A stretch of DNA of 64,000 nt from Spirochaeta africana DSM 8902 (GTDB taxonomy: Bacteria; Spirochaetota; Spirochaetia; DSM-27196; DSM-8902): the NCBI RefSeq assembly GCF_000242595.2, contig NC_017098.1, positions 620,001-684,000 of the forward strand. The letters run 5' to 3'. The position numbers were made by a program, and so were the translations under genes. Shown piece by piece: positions 52,257 through 58,066 of the stretch. The notes beneath the pieces were generated by a model that searched no databases, had not been told where the DNA came from, and was given only the letters and a program-made list of their open reading frames with translations. Position 1 is the first letter of the stretch. Each line of letters opens with the position of its first letter.

Positions 52257-52309
52257 ATTACACTGATACATGAAAGGTGCCGATAGATTGGGTGGAGGTC
52301 TGTGGCTGC

Positions 52310-55204
52310 GTGAGCGGTAAAAAAGTAATAACGAGTTTTTCAGTTACTATTATACTCATAAGCCTGTTTATTCTGGCCGCCTATGGAGGCGGCCTGGACT
52401 GGTTTGAAGCCAGGTTCTATCAGTCAGCCGTCCTTACCTCGTATACAGATCAACTGGAAAATGCCGAGCAGCAAATCGATGGCATGTTTACTCGCATAGC
52501 TGAACGTCTTGCTGTTATCGTGGAGCAAGAAGGCTTTCCCCAGGTGTTTCAGATAAACCAGCCTGCCGAGGCCGTACAGAATCGCAGGGTTGCAGTTGGT
52601 CGGATTGCCGAGAGCTATCCATCCTTTATGGATGTTCGGGTGTTCGGACTGAGGGACGAGCGGCTGCATTACAGCACTGCTGCGGATGATACGATTGAAC
52701 AAACGCCTGAACGTACGGTGTATGCCGAGGTGATACTGCGCGAGGATTTGCAGCGGATCTATCGCATGGTAGAGGGGGTCACGGACCCTCAGATAATACT
52801 GGACCCGGAAACCGACGTTGTGCATTTCTCCCATCCTGTTACCGATTCGCTGGGACTGACTCGTGGCAATGCAGTGTGGAGTTTCAGTATCGAATTGCTT
52901 ACTGCCGGCCTGAGGAATCTCGGGCTCCTACAGGTTCGCGAACGCCCGTTAATCATTGATGAGAATACTATCCTGTTGAACAGTACCCCGGAACGGTCTG
53001 GCATAGATTCGCAACTAATGGAAACCACCGCCGAGATTGAGTATCTCCGCAGTCCGGACACTGATTTGTCACTTGTCGCGGTGCAGATATCGCCTGCGGA
53101 TGGCTACCGTCTTGTACTGCTGCGTCCGGAAGAGAGTTTCCTCCTGGCTGAGCCGATACGGGCTGTTATTGTTGCTGCACTGTCGCTGACGTTGTTTCTG
53201 ACCGTGTTTCTGCTGCTGAACACCCGCAGCGACCCGGTGCTTACCGTCAGGGACCGGATGAAACGGCTGCAGCTGGAGGTCTTTCAACAGTTTCTGGAAT
53301 CACCGGATGGCCTGGATCAGCGCTCGTTGGAACGGGAGCTCGATCGTTTTCGCTACACCATGCATCGTCGCCTGACCGCCGGGCTTGGTCGGGTGAATGA
53401 AGATACCCAGCAGCATATCGAACAACTTATCAGCACCGGATGGCATGATATTCATGGGCTGCTTGCAGGTGGTGGGCAGAAGAGCCTCGATGTTGATCGC
53501 CTTGAACAGACCCTGGAACAGGTATTGTCTCGAATTCAGACCGTACCAGCTGCTGCTGACGCACGCGGTGGCGCTCGGCCCCCTGCCGCTCATCCCGCAC
53601 CACAGACCGCTGAAGACCTCGAGGAGATAAAAGAGGCAGAAGATCTCGAGGAGATTGCCGAGGCCGAACCTGTCGAAGAGCTCGAGGAGATTGAAGAGGC
53701 CGAGCCGATCGAAGAGCTCGAGGAGATTGAAGAGGCCGAACCGGTAGAGGATCTCGAGGAGATTGCCGAGGCCGAACCTGTCGAAGAGCTCGAGGAGATT
53801 GAAGAGGCCGAGCCGATCGAAGAGCTCGAGGAGATTGAAGAGGCCGAACCGGTAGAGGATCTCGAGGAGATCGTCGAGGCCGAGCCGGTAGAGGAGCTCG
53901 AGGAGATCGCCGAGGCCGAACCTGTCGAGGAGCTCGAGGAGATCGCCGAGACCGAACCTGTCGAAGAGCTCGAGGAGATTGAAGAGGCCGAACCTGTCGA
54001 AGAGCTCGAGGAGATTGAAGAGGCCGAACCGGTAGAGGATCTCGAGGAGATCGCCGAGGCCGAGCCGGTAGAGGAACTTGAGGAGATTGAAGAGGCCGAA
54101 CCGGTAGAGGATCTTGATGAGATCGCCGAGGCCGAACCAGTCGAAGAGCTCGAGGAGATCGCCGAGGCCGAACCGGTAGAGGAGCTTGAGGAGATTGAAG
54201 AGCTTGGGCAGCTCGGATCTATCGAGGATCTGGATCAGCTCCTGGGCACTACGGTAGACAGCGACACGGCGGCGGGATCTGCAGCCGGTGAGTTGTATCA
54301 GGACCTGGAATCTGCATTGCCGGAGCGTGAGTCGGATATTGAAACCCTTGAATCAGCCGACCCGGCGGGGAAAAAGCCCCCGGTTGAGGTGCTGGAGGAC
54401 AACGGTGACACCGCTGATCTGGTGCCGGTTGCCGGTTCTGATGATATCACTCGAGGGTACGAATCGTTCGAGCCGGTGCGAGAGGGGAGTCTTATTCAGT
54501 ATGAACCTGACTACAGGTTTACCGTTTACGAGATTACCCATGCGGCCATTCAGGATGACCATGGGGTATTCTCTATAGATCCATCCCAGTATGACGCTGC
54601 CGCACCTGCAGATAAAAGCGAATTCAGTGACCTGGTGCGCTCGGTATTGGGAGAGGCCGCCGAGCACGAGGCCGGATCAATTCCGCGCCTGCCGACGCGG
54701 GTGCGCAGTAACGATATCTGGAACAATATTGTGCGTGGCGAGTTTCGTATTGATGGCTTGTTTGCTTCGGATAAGCTCGAAGAGATCCCGCTCTACCGCT
54801 CCCTTATGCTGATGAGCCGCCTGCTGGAAACACCGGTGGTGGCGGCATTCAGAGACAGGGGTGATCGATTGCATGCCTTCGGGGGGCTGGGGCTGGCAGA
54901 AAGCTGCCTTGCCGGACTGCATGTGCCATATGTTGCGGTGCCGGATGGGTTACTGCAGGGGTTTGAGACCCGAAAAGCACTGATTGTAGATACTATTGAA
55001 TCTGTTCAGGATATCTTCCAGCACAGCTGCGAGAATGAGGTGTTCCCGGGGCTGCGGAAGCTGTTGTGGCTGCCGGCACGTTTCAGAAACGAGTACTGGT
55101 ATCTGCTGTTCGCATCAACCAGGGACGACTGGGATCCCATCGGATTGCTTGCTGAACGCGGCGTGGAGTTGACCGCCGCAGCTTACGAAGAGCTGCCGGT
55201 GTAA
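52310..55204 (+). CDS. Two-TM membrane protein of unknown function with 15 Glu-rich 12-residue repeats
   Basis: About 964 residues from the GTG at 52310 (GGAGG at 52294-52298); GTG codons at 52277 and 52292 are alternatives. It has a membrane segment at about 5-25, a presumably periplasmic domain (about 30-280) with the look of a small-molecule or signal-sensing domain, and a second membrane segment at about 284-306. A coiled-coil-like cytoplasmic part (about 310-430) follows. Residues 452-631 are fifteen copies of a 12-residue unit (AEPVEELEEIEE type), very acidic. The C-terminal folded domain (about 735-964) has no recognised motif. There is no kinase, GGDEF or methyl-accepting signature. 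It may be a sensor/scaffold, but no function can be assigned. Confidence 0.8.
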   Translation: MSGKKVITSFSVTIILISLFILAAYGGGLDWFEARFYQSAVLTSYTDQLENAEQQIDGMFTRIAERLAVIVEQEGFPQVFQINQPAEAVQNRRVAVGRIAESYPSFMDVRVFGLRDERLHYSTAADDTIEQTPERTVYAEVILREDLQRIYRMVEGVTDPQIILDPETDVVHFSHPVTDSLGLTRGNAVWSFSIELLTAGLRNLGLLQVRERPLIIDENTILLNSTPERSGIDSQLMETTAEIEYLRSPDTDLSLVAVQISPADGYRLVLLRPEESFLLAEPIRAVIVAALSLTLFLTVFLLLNTRSDPVLTVRDRMKRLQLEVFQQFLESPDGLDQRSLERELDRFRYTMHRRLTAGLGRVNEDTQQHIEQLISTGWHDIHGLLAGGGQKSLDVDRLEQTLEQVLSRIQTVPAAADARGGARPPAAHPAPQTAEDLEEIKEAEDLEEIAEAEPVEELEEIEEAEPIEELEEIEEAEPVEDLEEIAEAEPVEELEEIEEAEPIEELEEIEEAEPVEDLEEIVEAEPVEELEEIAEAEPVEELEEIAETEPVEELEEIEEAEPVEELEEIEEAEPVEDLEEIAEAEPVEELEEIEEAEPVEDLDEIAEAEPVEELEEIAEAEPVEELEEIEELGQLGSIEDLDQLLGTTVDSDTAAGSAAGELYQDLESALPERESDIETLESADPAGKKPPVEVLEDNGDTADLVPVAGSDDITRGYESFEPVREGSLIQYEPDYRFTVYEITHAAIQDDHGVFSIDPSQYDAAAPADKSEFSDLVRSVLGEAAEHEAGSIPRLPTRVRSNDIWNNIVRGEFRIDGLFASDKLEEIPLYRSLMLMSRLLETPVVAAFRDRGDRLHAFGGLGLAESCLAGLHVPYVAVPDGLLQGFETRKALIVDTIESVQDIFQHSCENEVFPGLRKLLWLPARFRNEYWYLLFASTRDDWDPIGLLAERGVELTAAAYEELPV
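53663..54202 (+). repeat. Fifteen tandem 36-bp repeats (12-residue acidic units)
   Basis: Each unit codes AEP(V/I)E(E/D)LEEI(E/A)E. Units 1-3 (53663-53770) and 4-6 (53771-53878) are a near-exact 108-bp duplication that differs at two bases near the end of the block. The array stays in frame throughout, so copy number could change without truncation. Confidence 0.95.
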
Positions 55205-55247: not shown

Positions 55248-55910
55248 TCAGTTTTGTTTATAGCTGTTTTCAGTCCCGGTATTGGCCAGAAATGTTTTAC
55301 GCGCCTGCAGTACATCGTTTTTGAGTTGCTCACACTTCTGCTGAACCATGACCTCAAGATCGAAAAGCGAGACAGCTGCCTGCAGGTTCTGATCGTTCGG
55401 CATCGGGAACGGTGTGTGTGCAAAGGCTTTCTTCGAAATCAGAGGAATGGTTTTTCCGTGGGTCAGATCTGCCAGTATTTGCTGCCCGAGCGTTGATTTG
55501 TAGTACATGGCGGTCAGCACGGCGGTTGATCTATCCTGATTTCTGGATCGCAGTACCAGAATGTTACTGCTGGGGATCGCGGACAGCTTGAAATCCGGTG
55601 CAACAATCGCTACTCTTCCGATTGATCCGACGATACTCACGAGTACATCGTTAGGCTGCAGCTGGTATTTCCTGGCAACATCAATCTGGGTATCAACTGT
55701 GATGCGCCGGTCAAGCTGGTTCAGATAACCGCTGTCAGGAAAATCTGTGATAGAGGCAACGAAGAACTCCTGTGCAGTGCTGCTGCGGTGCGCTTCGGGC
55801 TCGTCTTTCACCAGGGGAGAACGCAACAGATGGGCGATCTCGGCTGGAGTGGTGGTATCAATGTTGTGGAACAGGGATGCAGTACTTGATGATAATTGCG
55901 TTGCAATCAT
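55248..55910 (-). CDS. Solitary HsdS-like target-recognition-domain protein
   Basis: 220 residues. It resembles one half of a type I restriction specificity subunit (HsdS): a recognition-domain pattern QPNDVLVSIVGSIGRVAIV, then SSNILVLRS and YYKSTLGQQIL...GKTIPLISKKAF, followed by a C-terminal helix (about 175-210) like the HsdS conserved helical spacer. Full HsdS has two such units (about 400 residues). No methylase or nuclease gene is near. It could be a remnant, a DNA-binding regulator, or a partner for a methylase encoded elsewhere. Its codon use and base composition are more AT-rich than its neighbours, suggesting transfer. GGAGA lies before the ATG. Confidence 0.6.
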   Translation of the reverse strand: MIATQLSSSTASLFHNIDTTTPAEIAHLLRSPLVKDEPEAHRSSTAQEFFVASITDFPDSGYLNQLDRRITVDTQIDVARKYQLQPNDVLVSIVGSIGRVAIVAPDFKLSAIPSSNILVLRSRNQDRSTAVLTAMYYKSTLGQQILADLTHGKTIPLISKKAFAHTPFPMPNDQNLQAAVSLFDLEVMVQQKCEQLKNDVLQARKTFLANTGTENSYKQN

Positions 55911-55938
55911 ATAGTCTCCAGATAATAAGGTTATTTAC

Positions 55939-55967
55939 AGAGTAATGCACCGTGACAACGAAGTCAA
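55939..55967 (-). promoter_or_regulatory. Sigma70-type promoter for the HsdS-like gene
   Basis: On the minus strand, TTGACT (complement of 55962-55967), an exact 17-base spacer and TACTCT (complement of 55939-55944), about 28 bp before the start codon. Confidence 0.6.
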
Positions 55968-55998
55968 TAGTATGCACAAATAATTACAGGAGCAAAAT

Positions 55999-56445
55999 GT
56001 GGCAAAAAACTACAATATCTACACCGATGGGGGCTGCCATGGCAACCCGGGACCCGGCGGATGGGCCTATGTCATAGAGTTTGATGGTGAGCATACGGAG
56101 AACTCCGGCTCAGACGGAGCTACCACCAATAACCGGATGGAGCTGTCTGCGGTTATTGAGGCGTTGACATGGGTTCAGCATCGCGGCGACTACCGAGAGA
56201 TCCATGTTACTACCGATTCGCAGTATGTTAAAAACGGGATTACGACCTGGATTCATACCTGGGTACGAAATGGCTGGAAGACCAGTAAAAAAGAGCCGGT
56301 AAAAAACCGTGATCTATGGATGCAGCTGTATGAGCTGAACCAGCTGCTGCCGGTGGACTGGCACTGGACCAAAGGGCACGCAGGCCACACCTACAACGAG
56401 CGATGTGATGCGCTGGTGCAGGAAGCTATTCGTCTTCGGGAATAA
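55999..56445 (+). CDS. rnhA: Ribonuclease HI
   Basis: 148 residues. Catalytic residues are Asp10 (YTDGGCHGNPGPGG), Glu48 (NNRMELSA) and Asp73 (TTDSQYVKNGI); the last acidic residue is in GHTYNERCDALV. It degrades RNA in RNA-DNA hybrids. The GTG at 55999 is in frame; AGGAG (55988-55992) supports it, while the overlapping ATG at 55997 is in a different frame. Divergent from the HsdS-like gene. Confidence 0.95.
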   Translation: MAKNYNIYTDGGCHGNPGPGGWAYVIEFDGEHTENSGSDGATTNNRMELSAVIEALTWVQHRGDYREIHVTTDSQYVKNGITTWIHTWVRNGWKTSKKEPVKNRDLWMQLYELNQLLPVDWHWTKGHAGHTYNERCDALVQEAIRLRE

Positions 56446-56494: not shown

Positions 56495-58066
56495 GTGAGA
56501 CCTCATACTATTATTGGTTATGTACCGAATGGCTACACCGGATGCCTGGTTTATCTGGAGGTTGATATTCGGCATGGTATTCCCGGTATTCAGATTATTG
56601 GCCTGCCCGAGGGGGCGGTTCGGGAAGCACGTGAACGGGTCCGTATTGCCTTGTCGAACGCCGGGTTCGGGGTTACCGGCAAGAAAATTCTGGTTGGGCT
56701 TGGGCCTGCAGGTATCCCCAAGGCTTCGGCAGGGCTCGATCTGGCAATTGCGCTCTCTATCCTGACAGCGGAAGCGGGTTTGACGCTTCCCGAACCGATA
56801 GCTGTTATTGGCGAGCTGGGCATCCACGGTTCCATTCTGCCGGCTCAGGGTGTGCTGGCCGCAGTGGACGAGGCGGTCAGATCCGGTGCGAAAGCGGCAA
56901 TCGTTCCACGGGACAACCTGGCCGAGGCGGCTTTGATATCTGCCTGCCGGCCGATCGGGGTTGATAGCCTTGCGGGAGCATGGCATGCCGTACTGACGCT
57001 TGCGGCTGGGGAATTCCCTGAGACCGACGGTTTCAGCGCCGAGACAGCACCTGTCCCCGCGCCAATAGCTGCGCCTGATTTTGCAGATCCAGGTGCCCCG
57101 GTAGTGCGTGGCACCGCCGAGCAGCTGCGTCGTCTGACCATTGCTGCTGCAGGCGGCCACCATATCGGGTTGTTCGGACCTCCAGGTACCGGCAAAACTT
57201 TGGGGGCACATCAGCTTGGTTCGCTGCTGCCGCCGCTGCTCCCGCAGGAGATGATCGAGACAGTTCGTGTCTGGAGCCTGGCCGGGTTGCCGTTTCATGC
57301 TGATGCCGGGGTGTGGCACCCGCCGGTGCGCGCCCCGCATCACAGCGCATCGGTAGAGGGTATGATAGGCGGAGGGCGCTATCTGCAGCCAGGTGAGGCA
57401 TCCCTGGCGCATAACGGGCTGCTTATCCTTGATGAGGTAGCCGAGTATCCCCGAGGTGTTCTGCAGGCGTTACGCGACCCACTGGAGAGCGGTGTTGTCC
57501 GGCTGGTCCGGGCAGGAACTCAAGCCCTGTTCCCGGCACGAGCTATGGTGTGTCTCACTGCCAACCTCTGTCCCTGTGGATCTTACGGTAAACCACGGGG
57601 TGTCTGTTCGTGTACGACTGCCGAGATCAGCCGCTACTGGCGCAAGTTTGGCGGTGCGGTAATGGATCGGATTGCTGTTCGGGTAGCCTGCCTCCCGGAC
57701 GAAAAGCCGGTGCAGGTATCAACTGCTGAACTGCGTGTCCGGGTGGCAGCAGCCCGACAGCGCCAGCGTGAGCGTATCTGCGGCAGGGGAGGCTTTCGCA
57801 ACAGCCAGCTGCAGCGCTCGGACCTGCTGGAACACGGAGAGTTCTCTGCACTGGCAGCACACACTGCAGACCGACTGGCACTGCAGCATGGTCTCACGTT
57901 TCGCGGAAGCCTGCATGTGCTGCAGATGTCCCGTACGATCGCCGATCTGGAGCAGCAGGACGCGGTCCTTGTGCAGCACGTCGAAGAATCGGCAGCTATA
58001 CGCTGTACAATCGGCGGGGGAAATCCCTGGAACTGGCTGGCGCAGGGGCAGCGTGCCAGGTCTTGA
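56495..58066 (+). CDS. comM: YifB/ComM-family Mg-chelatase-like AAA+ ATPase
   Basis: 523 residues from GTG 56495. The N-terminal domain (about 1-170) has LEVDIRHGIPGIQIIGLPEGAVREARERV, the YifB family start. The AAA+ core has Walker A GPPGTGKT (228-235) and Walker B LLILDEVAEYP, with a CPCGSYG...C zinc-like segment after it, then a C-terminal Mg_chelatase_C region. ComM in Vibrio is a hexameric helicase for branch migration during natural transformation; whether this organism is transformable is unknown. It may overlap the next gene only if that gene used an upstream TTG start. Confidence 0.92.
   Translation: MRPHTIIGYVPNGYTGCLVYLEVDIRHGIPGIQIIGLPEGAVREARERVRIALSNAGFGVTGKKILVGLGPAGIPKASAGLDLAIALSILTAEAGLTLPEPIAVIGELGIHGSILPAQGVLAAVDEAVRSGAKAAIVPRDNLAEAALISACRPIGVDSLAGAWHAVLTLAAGEFPETDGFSAETAPVPAPIAAPDFADPGAPVVRGTAEQLRRLTIAAAGGHHIGLFGPPGTGKTLGAHQLGSLLPPLLPQEMIETVRVWSLAGLPFHADAGVWHPPVRAPHHSASVEGMIGGGRYLQPGEASLAHNGLLILDEVAEYPRGVLQALRDPLESGVVRLVRAGTQALFPARAMVCLTANLCPCGSYGKPRGVCSCTTAEISRYWRKFGGAVMDRIAVRVACLPDEKPVQVSTAELRVRVAAARQRQRERICGRGGFRNSQLQRSDLLEHGEFSALAAHTADRLALQHGLTFRGSLHVLQMSRTIADLEQQDAVLVQHVEESAAIRCTIGGGNPWNWLAQGQRARS

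What the first reader, a model, noticed from the sequence alone, without database searches (positions are those of the whole stretch)
55248..55910. Solitary half-size HsdS-like protein with no restriction or modification partner
The protein looks like a single target-recognition domain plus helical spacer of a type I specificity subunit, with its own promoter (TTGACT-17-TACTCT) and intact frame. No hsdM or hsdR lies within the window. Half-HsdS proteins can dimerise and redirect a methylase, so it may act in trans, or be a DNA-binding regulator of a new kind. It is flanked by housekeeping genes and looks more AT-rich than they are.
Basis: partly seen in the sequence, partly recalled or inferred. 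Interest (0 to 1): 0.5.

Follow-up and report, generated by a model that had tools for sequence, protein, structure and literature searches.

The report
Inherited orphan DNA-reading half-protein in spirochaetes
A spirochaete gene that looks like a leftover half of a restriction enzyme is instead an intact gene passed down under selection, in the same chromosomal slot, in part of a bacterial order and without the enzyme it once served, which suggests that the cell has put a DNA-reading module to a new use.

Summary
The gene is real: 220 aa, minus strand, 55910-55248, with a plausible promoter of its own. Its protein is a single HsdS-type target-recognition domain (TRD) plus one 39-residue helix (AlphaFold pLDDT 86.9; best solved matches Esub1 Z 18.0, PacII S 17.2, HsdS 1yf2 16.7). 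The one-contig 3.29-Mb genome has no hsdM, no hsdR and no other hsdS by Pfam; its one DNA methylase found by PF02384/PF07669 is a type ISP enzyme with its own specificity domain.

It is not a remnant. 15 of 46 genomes of the order carry it, 15 of 15 beside and divergent from rnhA-comM. Its tree shares 10 of 12 splits with the neighbours' tree, dN/dS is 0.06-0.17, and carriage shows no association with hsdM or hsdR. The TRD is better conserved (0.48) than the helix (0.24), the reverse of an ordinary HsdS. The nearest relatives seen outside spirochaetes are C-terminal TRDs of plasmid M/S fusion proteins.

Best reading: a domesticated half-S, probably a homodimeric DNA-binding protein outside restriction-modification. 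Target and role are unproven; no shared operator was found. Esub1 is the best functional lead.

The parts
55248..55910 (-). orphan half-HsdS gene, 220 aa (single TRD, about residues 22-171, plus C-terminal helix 173-211)
55939..55967 (-). probable promoter TTGACT-17-TACTCT of the half-HsdS gene; TTGAC on this strand in 15 of 15 carriers
   Evidence: sequence; comparative; not listed by the generic scan
55911..55998 (.). divergent intergenic region shared with rnhA
55999..56445 (+). rnhA (RNase HI), divergent neighbour, adjacent in 15 of 15 carriers
56495..58066 (+). comM (Mg-chelatase/ComM-type AAA ATPase; the name ComM is recalled), next gene after rnhA in 15 of 15 carriers
52277..55204 (+). 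convergent acidic-repeat protein gene that bounds the slot on the other side

Best explanation
The gene is a domesticated half-S: a single HsdS-type target-recognition domain with one helix, related to the C-terminal TRD of M/S-type (methylase plus half-specificity) proteins, and kept as an ordinary chromosomal gene without methylase and nuclease. Shown: intactness, predicted fold, inheritance in one slot, purifying selection, absence of type I partners in this genome by the profiles searched. Inferred: it still binds DNA through the TRD; two copies pair through the C-terminal helix, as half-HsdS proteins do, to read a bipartite, roughly palindromic site; it acts by occupying DNA (regulator, architectural or recombination/uptake factor) rather than by guiding methylation. 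Control of the divergent rnhA-comM genes or of itself is the simplest guess, not shown. My odds: domesticated and outside R-M, 0.85; still a sequence-specific DNA binder, 0.7; local transcription regulator, 0.3.
For: Fold. Only PF01420 gene in the genome, no HsdM, no HSDR_N. 15 of 46 genomes of the order, bits 254-306, no stop inside in 15 of 15; 15 of 15 beside rnhA-comM. Neighbour tree shares 10 of 12 splits; 2000 label shuffles mean 0.27, maximum 3; identity tracks ComM, rho 0.75 over 105 pairs; dN/dS 0.055-0.17 in 6 pairs, like rnhA and comM. TRD mean pairwise column identity 0.48, helix 0.24. No association with hsdM or hsdR. Near full-length match (profile 10-202 of 205, 136 bits) to the C-terminus of the Sulfuricurvum M/S protein.
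Against: No DNA target was found: no bipartite palindrome is shared by 10 representative regions beyond shuffles. Net charge is within 1 of zero in 9 of 15 members (pI 6.0-10.3), so DNA binding is not obvious from charge. Only one of five close pairs shows an unusually conserved intergenic stretch. Dimerisation was not modelled. dS exceeds 1 in 5 of the 6 pairs, so those ratios are rough. The gene is not found in 31 of 46 genomes, many of them drafts, and the tree needs 7 changes, so it is dispensable over long times. Methylases outside PF02384 and PF07669 were not searched.
Confidence: 0.6

Rival explanations
1. It works in DNA uptake or recombination, or in phage-host conflict, as Esub1 may, by binding incoming or recombining DNA; the neighbours comM and rnhA act on such DNA.
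For: Esub1 is the best solved match by profile (E 3.7e-9 against 0.0018 for the next) and by fold (Z 18.0), is also a single TRD of 198-206 aa, and was crystallised with a protein called Prx. I take this Prx, from recall, to be the streptococcal phage protein paratox, which lowers DNA uptake (start of the abstract of PMC11129628 in the listing). comM adjoins in 15 of 15 carriers.
Against: No call shows that this Prx is paratox or that Esub1 is streptococcal, and what Esub1 does could not be read: no paper naming it was found. rnhA and comM are adjacent without the gene too. Natural transformation in these spirochaetes was not examined. Odds put at 0.15 because the Prx link is recalled.
Confidence: 0.15
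2. It is a working specificity subunit that pairs in trans with a methylase elsewhere.
For: Half-S proteins and distant orphan S subunits do work with methylases (H. pylori, passages of PMC3936762; engineered half-HsdS, passages of PMC6158711). 5 of 15 carriers have an HsdM of 150 bits or more, 7 of 15 one of E 1e-20 or better.
Against: Own genome has no HsdM; its one candidate is a type ISP enzyme with its own specificity domain, 351 bits. 5 of 15 carriers have neither HsdM (strong or partial) nor HSDR_N (of these, G034 and G018 are 76% and 89% complete). The region after the TRD is not matched by the Pfam profile and the helix is poorly conserved. Methylases of PF01555, PF02086 and PF00145 were not searched.
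Confidence: 0.08
3. It is a nuclease built on the same fold, like the HsdS-like type II enzyme R.SwaI.
For: HsdS-like nucleases exist (R.SwaI, passages of PMC6158711); a similar size is recalled.
Against: No methylase is encoded beside it, and no nuclease family was among the matches (of 46 PADLOC families only 25 were listed). Catalytic residues were not tested against such structures.
Confidence: 0.05
4. It is a decaying relic of an R-M operon.
For: Solitary; not found in 31 of 46 genomes.
Against: dN/dS 0.055-0.17; no stop inside in 15 of 15 (the stops flagged in three matches are the genes' own ends); same slot; conserved TTGAC element; no hsdM or hsdR match on the slot contigs.
Confidence: 0.03
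5. It is an anti-restriction decoy that occupies type I sites or titrates foreign HsdM.
For: The fold would permit either; 5 of 15 carriers also hold a strong HsdM.
Against: Kept in genomes without a type I system; no match in 50,697 phage records and none confirmed in viral contigs, a scan that depends on two short peptide patterns.
Confidence: 0.07

Closest known systems
Type I specificity subunit HsdS (1yf2, 3okg, 2y7c)
   Same: TRD fold and helix arrangement (Z 13.8-16.7); PADLOC Specificity_I in 15 of 15 members; PF01420 here, though at E 0.001 it found only 6 of the 15 slot genes
   Different: One TRD, no hsdM or hsdR in this genome, TRD conserved and inherited vertically, region after the TRD diverged
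Esub1 (8vsq, 8vsr)
   Same: Single TRD of 198-206 aa, best profile and fold match
   Different: 16% identity over the aligned fold; no Prx-like partner looked for here; Esub1's host and function not readable with these tools
M/S fusion proteins (Sulfuricurvum WP_013450026.1, Lactobacillus WP_014566283.1 and others)
   Same: C-terminal TRD matches most of the orphan; in Sulfuricurvum also its start, RSQLIKDE against RSPLVKDE
   Different: They carry an N-terminal N6_Mtase domain in 8 of 8 opened; three of eight sit in front of hsdM and hsdS genes
Orphan S subunits of H. pylori and M. catarrhalis
   Same: Away from hsdM and hsdR (passages)
   Different: Those genomes hold a type I methylase that uses or may use them; in M. 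catarrhalis TRDs move between loci
Engineered half-HsdS (SauSTORF499P CC398-1)
   Same: One TRD that dimerises to a full S (passages of PMC6158711)
   Different: Works with HsdM in R-M

Membership tests
Type I HsdS subunit | HsdS-type TRD fold | tested here: met
Type I HsdS subunit | two TRDs in one chain | tested here: not met
   one TRD, 220 aa
Type I HsdS subunit | cognate hsdM and hsdR in operon or genome | tested here: not met
   own one-contig genome: none by PF02384, PF07669, PF04313
Type I HsdS subunit | TRDs exchanged and highly variable while the helices are conserved | tested here: not met
   TRD 0.48, helix 0.24; congruent tree. The expectation for HsdS is established knowledge, not measured here
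Type I HsdS subunit | conserved region after the TRD | tested here: inconclusive
   PF01420 match stops at 135-141 of 168 in 6 of 6 orphans found, while 33 of 35 other matches run past 150; but the Sulfuricurvum M/S match stops at 135 too
Half-S that homodimerises for a methylase | single TRD plus long helix | tested here: met
Half-S that homodimerises for a methylase | methylase partner | tested here: not met
   (this genome; PF02384 and PF07669 only)
Half-S that homodimerises for a methylase | homodimer | not testable with these tools
   only single chains can be folded
Esub1 type | single-TRD fold of about 200 aa | tested here: met
Esub1 type | binding by a Prx-like protein | not tested
M/S fusion protein | homologous C-terminal TRD | tested here: met
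   136 bits to Sulfuricurvum, 50-82 to the other 7 of 8
M/S fusion protein | N-terminal methylase domain | tested here: not met
   220 aa in all
Transcription regulator of rnhA or itself | conserved operator in the divergent region | tested here: inconclusive
   no shared palindrome; one of five pairs with an invariant stretch
HsdS-like type II restriction enzyme (R.SwaI) | nuclease active site | not tested
   known only from passages of PMC6158711

The most novel reading that the evidence does not exclude
Stand-alone HsdS-type TRD proteins (this spirochaete family, Esub1, and M/S fusions whose methylase motif IV looks inactive) are one class of restriction-derived DNA-binding proteins that no longer restrict or methylate and that act where DNA is taken up, recombined or repaired; phages target them, if the Prx crystallised with Esub1 is paratox, as I recall.
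Probability: 0.13. Interest if true: 0.75.

Novelty: new variant of a known kind. Interest (0 to 1): 0.5.

Why it matters
Orphan S subunits are usually taken for spare or broken parts of restriction systems. A half-S inherited in one slot in five of an order's eight families (as labelled), under selection like that on rnhA and comM, would be a clear case of a restriction DNA reader put to cellular use, and gives a named cultured carrier (Alkalispirochaeta alkalica DSM 8900) in which its target and role can be measured.

Tried and rejected
Operator search: palindromic and bipartite patterns in 10 representative divergent regions (of 15) gave nothing beyond shuffles (P 0.50, 0.69, 0.62); only GTCAA, the -35 element, stood out, in 10 of 10, P 0.015 of 200 shuffles. 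Intergenic constraint: only pair G014/G007 was exceptional (identical 40-nt windows; 0.08% of all windows reach that); the four other pairs were not.

Partner by co-occurrence: no association with HsdM at 150 bits (5 of 15 against 8 of 31, P 0.73) or at E 1e-20 (7 of 15 against 10 of 31, P 0.52), nor with HSDR_N (6 of 15 against 11 of 31, P 1.0). The 150-bit line was my choice, made after seeing the list. Phage or mobile origin of the gene itself: no phage match, none confirmed in viral contigs; 11 plasmid records, 23-30% identity, of which I opened 7; H7 and H8 look like copies of H6, and H9 and H11 are annotated as S subunits. A solitary half-HsdS in another class (L063) had one weak 22-bit match in 99 other genomes, so I did not count it in this family.

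Esub1 function: not found in the library. Orphan HsdS: listings; I read passages of PMC6158711, PMC11129628, PMC3936762, PMC6241649 and PMC5476646, no whole paper. In the two on orphan S subunits (PMC3936762, PMC6241649) the genomes also hold a type I methylase. No spirochaetal orphan was in these listings or in that; subscription journals and preprints are largely missing from the library. VIA-align and Foldseek lists did not show R.SwaI; this excludes nothing.

Dropped rows: five near-duplicate regions were left out (15 to 10). In one search, 41 of 46 genomes were used, with a warning of long branches, G000 among them; G040, whose slot lies off the contig, was counted there as a non-carrier, so one of the 7 changes may be false.

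Full report
The observation. The reading frame at 55910-55248 (minus strand) codes for 220 residues without interruption. Pfam places residues 63-175 in Methylase_S, PF01420, at 26.9 bits over a cut-off of 22, and PADLOC's Specificity_I profiles reach 39.5 bits. The genome is one contig of 3,285,855 bases, 99.98% complete; the size is what I recall for Spirochaeta africana DSM 8902, a name that no search of this genome gave. PF01420 has one match in it, this gene. PF02384 has three: two are RNA-methylase-like genes, judged by me from the ORFs, and one is a 1620-aa type ISP enzyme (Mrr nuclease, helicase, coupler and Type_ISP_C specificity domains), which should read its own DNA target. PF07669 adds no other partner (one further match, 23 profile positions, below the cut-off), and HSDR_N has none. 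Other methylase families were not searched.

Structure. An alignment of the window protein with 12 relatives gave a model with mean pLDDT 86.9 and pTM 0.81: a TRD followed by a 39-residue helix, 173-211. Foldseek's best solved matches are PacII S, Esub1, BsaXI S and HsdS proteins; VIA-align gives Esub1 Z 18.0 over 183 residues at 2.8 A, PacII S 17.2, HsdS 1yf2 16.7. By sequence profile, Esub1 (3.7e-9) stands far ahead of the HsdS chains (0.0018 and above).

Distribution and slot. With a profile of 15 members, 15 of 46 genomes of the order carry the gene (254-306 bits); over 296 genomes of the phylum, matches outside the carriers reach at most 60.3 bits. Carriers fall in five of the order's eight labelled families. 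A separate scan of named genomes gave 12 loci, which hold 12 of the 14 relatives' genes letter for letter: Spirochaeta, Spirochaetaceae and Spirochaetales MAGs and Alkalispirochaeta alkalica DSM 8900. In 15 of 15 carriers the gene lies beside rnhA and divergent from it, with comM behind rnhA. rnhA is found in 44 of 46 genomes. Among 30 rnhA loci examined, 7 are carriers and the other 23 show no remnant in frames of 40 codons or more (best 5.6 bits; some of these loci are cut short by contig ends). In seven longer non-carrier loci the slot is closed, with the acidic-repeat gene running up to rnhA (4 of 7), or holds one or two other genes, among them an apparent small membrane protein (3 of 7); no remnant scores above 4.4 bits.

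Vertical inheritance and selection. Pairwise identity of the half-S tracks that of ComM (rho 0.75, 105 pairs), UvrB (0.56, 78 pairs) and, more weakly, RnhA (rho 0.39, 105 pairs; Mantel r 0.86, 0 of 5000 permutations as high). Its tree shares 10 of 12 inner splits with a tree of RnhA+ComM+UvrB, against a mean of 0.27 and a maximum of 3 for 2000 label shuffles; the two splits that differ are deep. dN/dS in six close pairs is 0.055-0.17; for rnhA and comM in the same pairs it is 0.05-0.12, two saturated pairs aside; dS exceeds 1 in five of the six half-S pairs, so the ratios are rough. On a tree of 41 genomes presence needs 7 changes, against 12.5 for shuffled labels, so old presence with several losses, or a few gains, are both possible; the shared slot and congruent tree favour losses.

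Why it is probably outside restriction-modification. Carriage shows no association with hsdM (150 bits or more: 5 of 15 carriers, 8 of 31 others, P 0.73; E 1e-20 or better: 7 of 15, 10 of 31, P 0.52) or with HSDR_N (6 of 15, 11 of 31, P 1.0); five carriers, this genome among them, have neither, although the carrier relatives are drafts and small numbers could hide a weak link. Within the family the TRD is conserved (mean pairwise column identity 0.48, 146 positions) and the helix less so (0.24, 38 positions), the reverse of what is established for HsdS. Invariant residues include R30, P32, L33, K35, S53, D56, N116, R121, G152 and K160.

Origin. Outside spirochaetes, 11 plasmid records match. 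I opened 7 of them, and one more found with Esub1: 8 proteins of 538-632 aa, annotated M/S, N-6 DNA methylase or hypothetical, each with an N6_Mtase domain in front (8 of 8) and the matching TRD at the C-terminus. The family profile matches the Sulfuricurvum one over positions 10-202 of 205 at 136 bits and the seven others at 50-82 bits; its start, RSQLIKDE, resembles RSPLVKDE here. In five of the eight, the place where N6 methylases have (N/D/S)PP(Y/F) (recalled motif) reads IPPF, FPPF, CPPW, FPPM or FPPL; my pattern found nothing in the other three, which were not inspected further and of which one scores 225 bits to N6_Mtase. So several of these proteins may not methylate. A 102-residue stretch of Esub1 finds 16 plasmid records, 9 annotated N-6 DNA methylase, 6 S subunit and 1 unannotated, with the Lactobacillus gene common to both searches, and no phage record. 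The spirochaete gene is best seen as such a TRD on its own.

Mechanism. Half-HsdS proteins dimerise and read bipartite sites (passages of PMC6158711; of PMC3936762). I infer the same here, without a methylase. What the binding does is open. A TTGAC element on the gene's strand in 15 of 15 carriers suggests that the gene is expressed. No common operator was found. The neighbours suggest DNA metabolism but are adjacent with or without the gene. Esub1, crystallised with Prx, is the best functional lead; that this Prx is the streptococcal competence-blocking phage protein paratox is my recall (paratox and its abbreviation Prx: abstract start of PMC11129628), and I could not read what Esub1 does.

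Verdict. The finding is real, and more interesting than a remnant: an orphan half-S kept by selection. Known kind (HsdS-type TRD), new variant (domesticated, vertically inherited, no type I partners here). Function inferred only.

Noticed in passing
window 52277-55204: 975-aa protein with a long run of acidic repeats (LEEIEEAEPVE type) and no Pfam match; its N-terminal part recurs beside rplQ in relatives.
   Followed up: partly
L034:3161-9884 (own genome, about 1558161-1564884): Type ISP restriction enzyme of 1620 aa followed by a GmrSD_N protein: the only DNA methylase found in the genome by PF02384 and PF07669.
   Followed up: partly
L020, L021, L022, between the half-S gene and rnhA: Inverted repeat TATACAAC/T-N12-GTTGTATA just upstream of rnhA in three family-7 genomes; could be an RNA hairpin or an operator.
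   Followed up: no
L119:7389-7916, L121:3221-3769, L122:2927-3418, L026:10518-11036: Small gene of an apparent membrane protein (MVYRF..., MIHRIRF...) in the same slot in families 2 and 3; in family 5 it lies just behind the half-S gene on the same strand. That they are one family is my reading of the letters.
   Followed up: partly
L113:4786-6579, L126:1786-3603, L127:1720-3558 and others: Plasmid M/S fusion proteins with a degenerate motif IV, two of them (L126, L127) without an annotated hsdM or hsdS in the 3 kb seen on each side: possible pseudo-methylases.
   Followed up: partly
L063:1444-2028 and L064:1243-2124: Single-TRD proteins apparently standing alone (1.5 kb seen on each side) in another class of the phylum, L063 beside a TOPRIM/primase-like gene (my reading of the ORF).
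   Followed up: partly
window 55953-55966: TGAC-N6-GTCA palindrome overlapping the -35 of the half-S promoter; not a pattern shared by relatives.
   Followed up: partly
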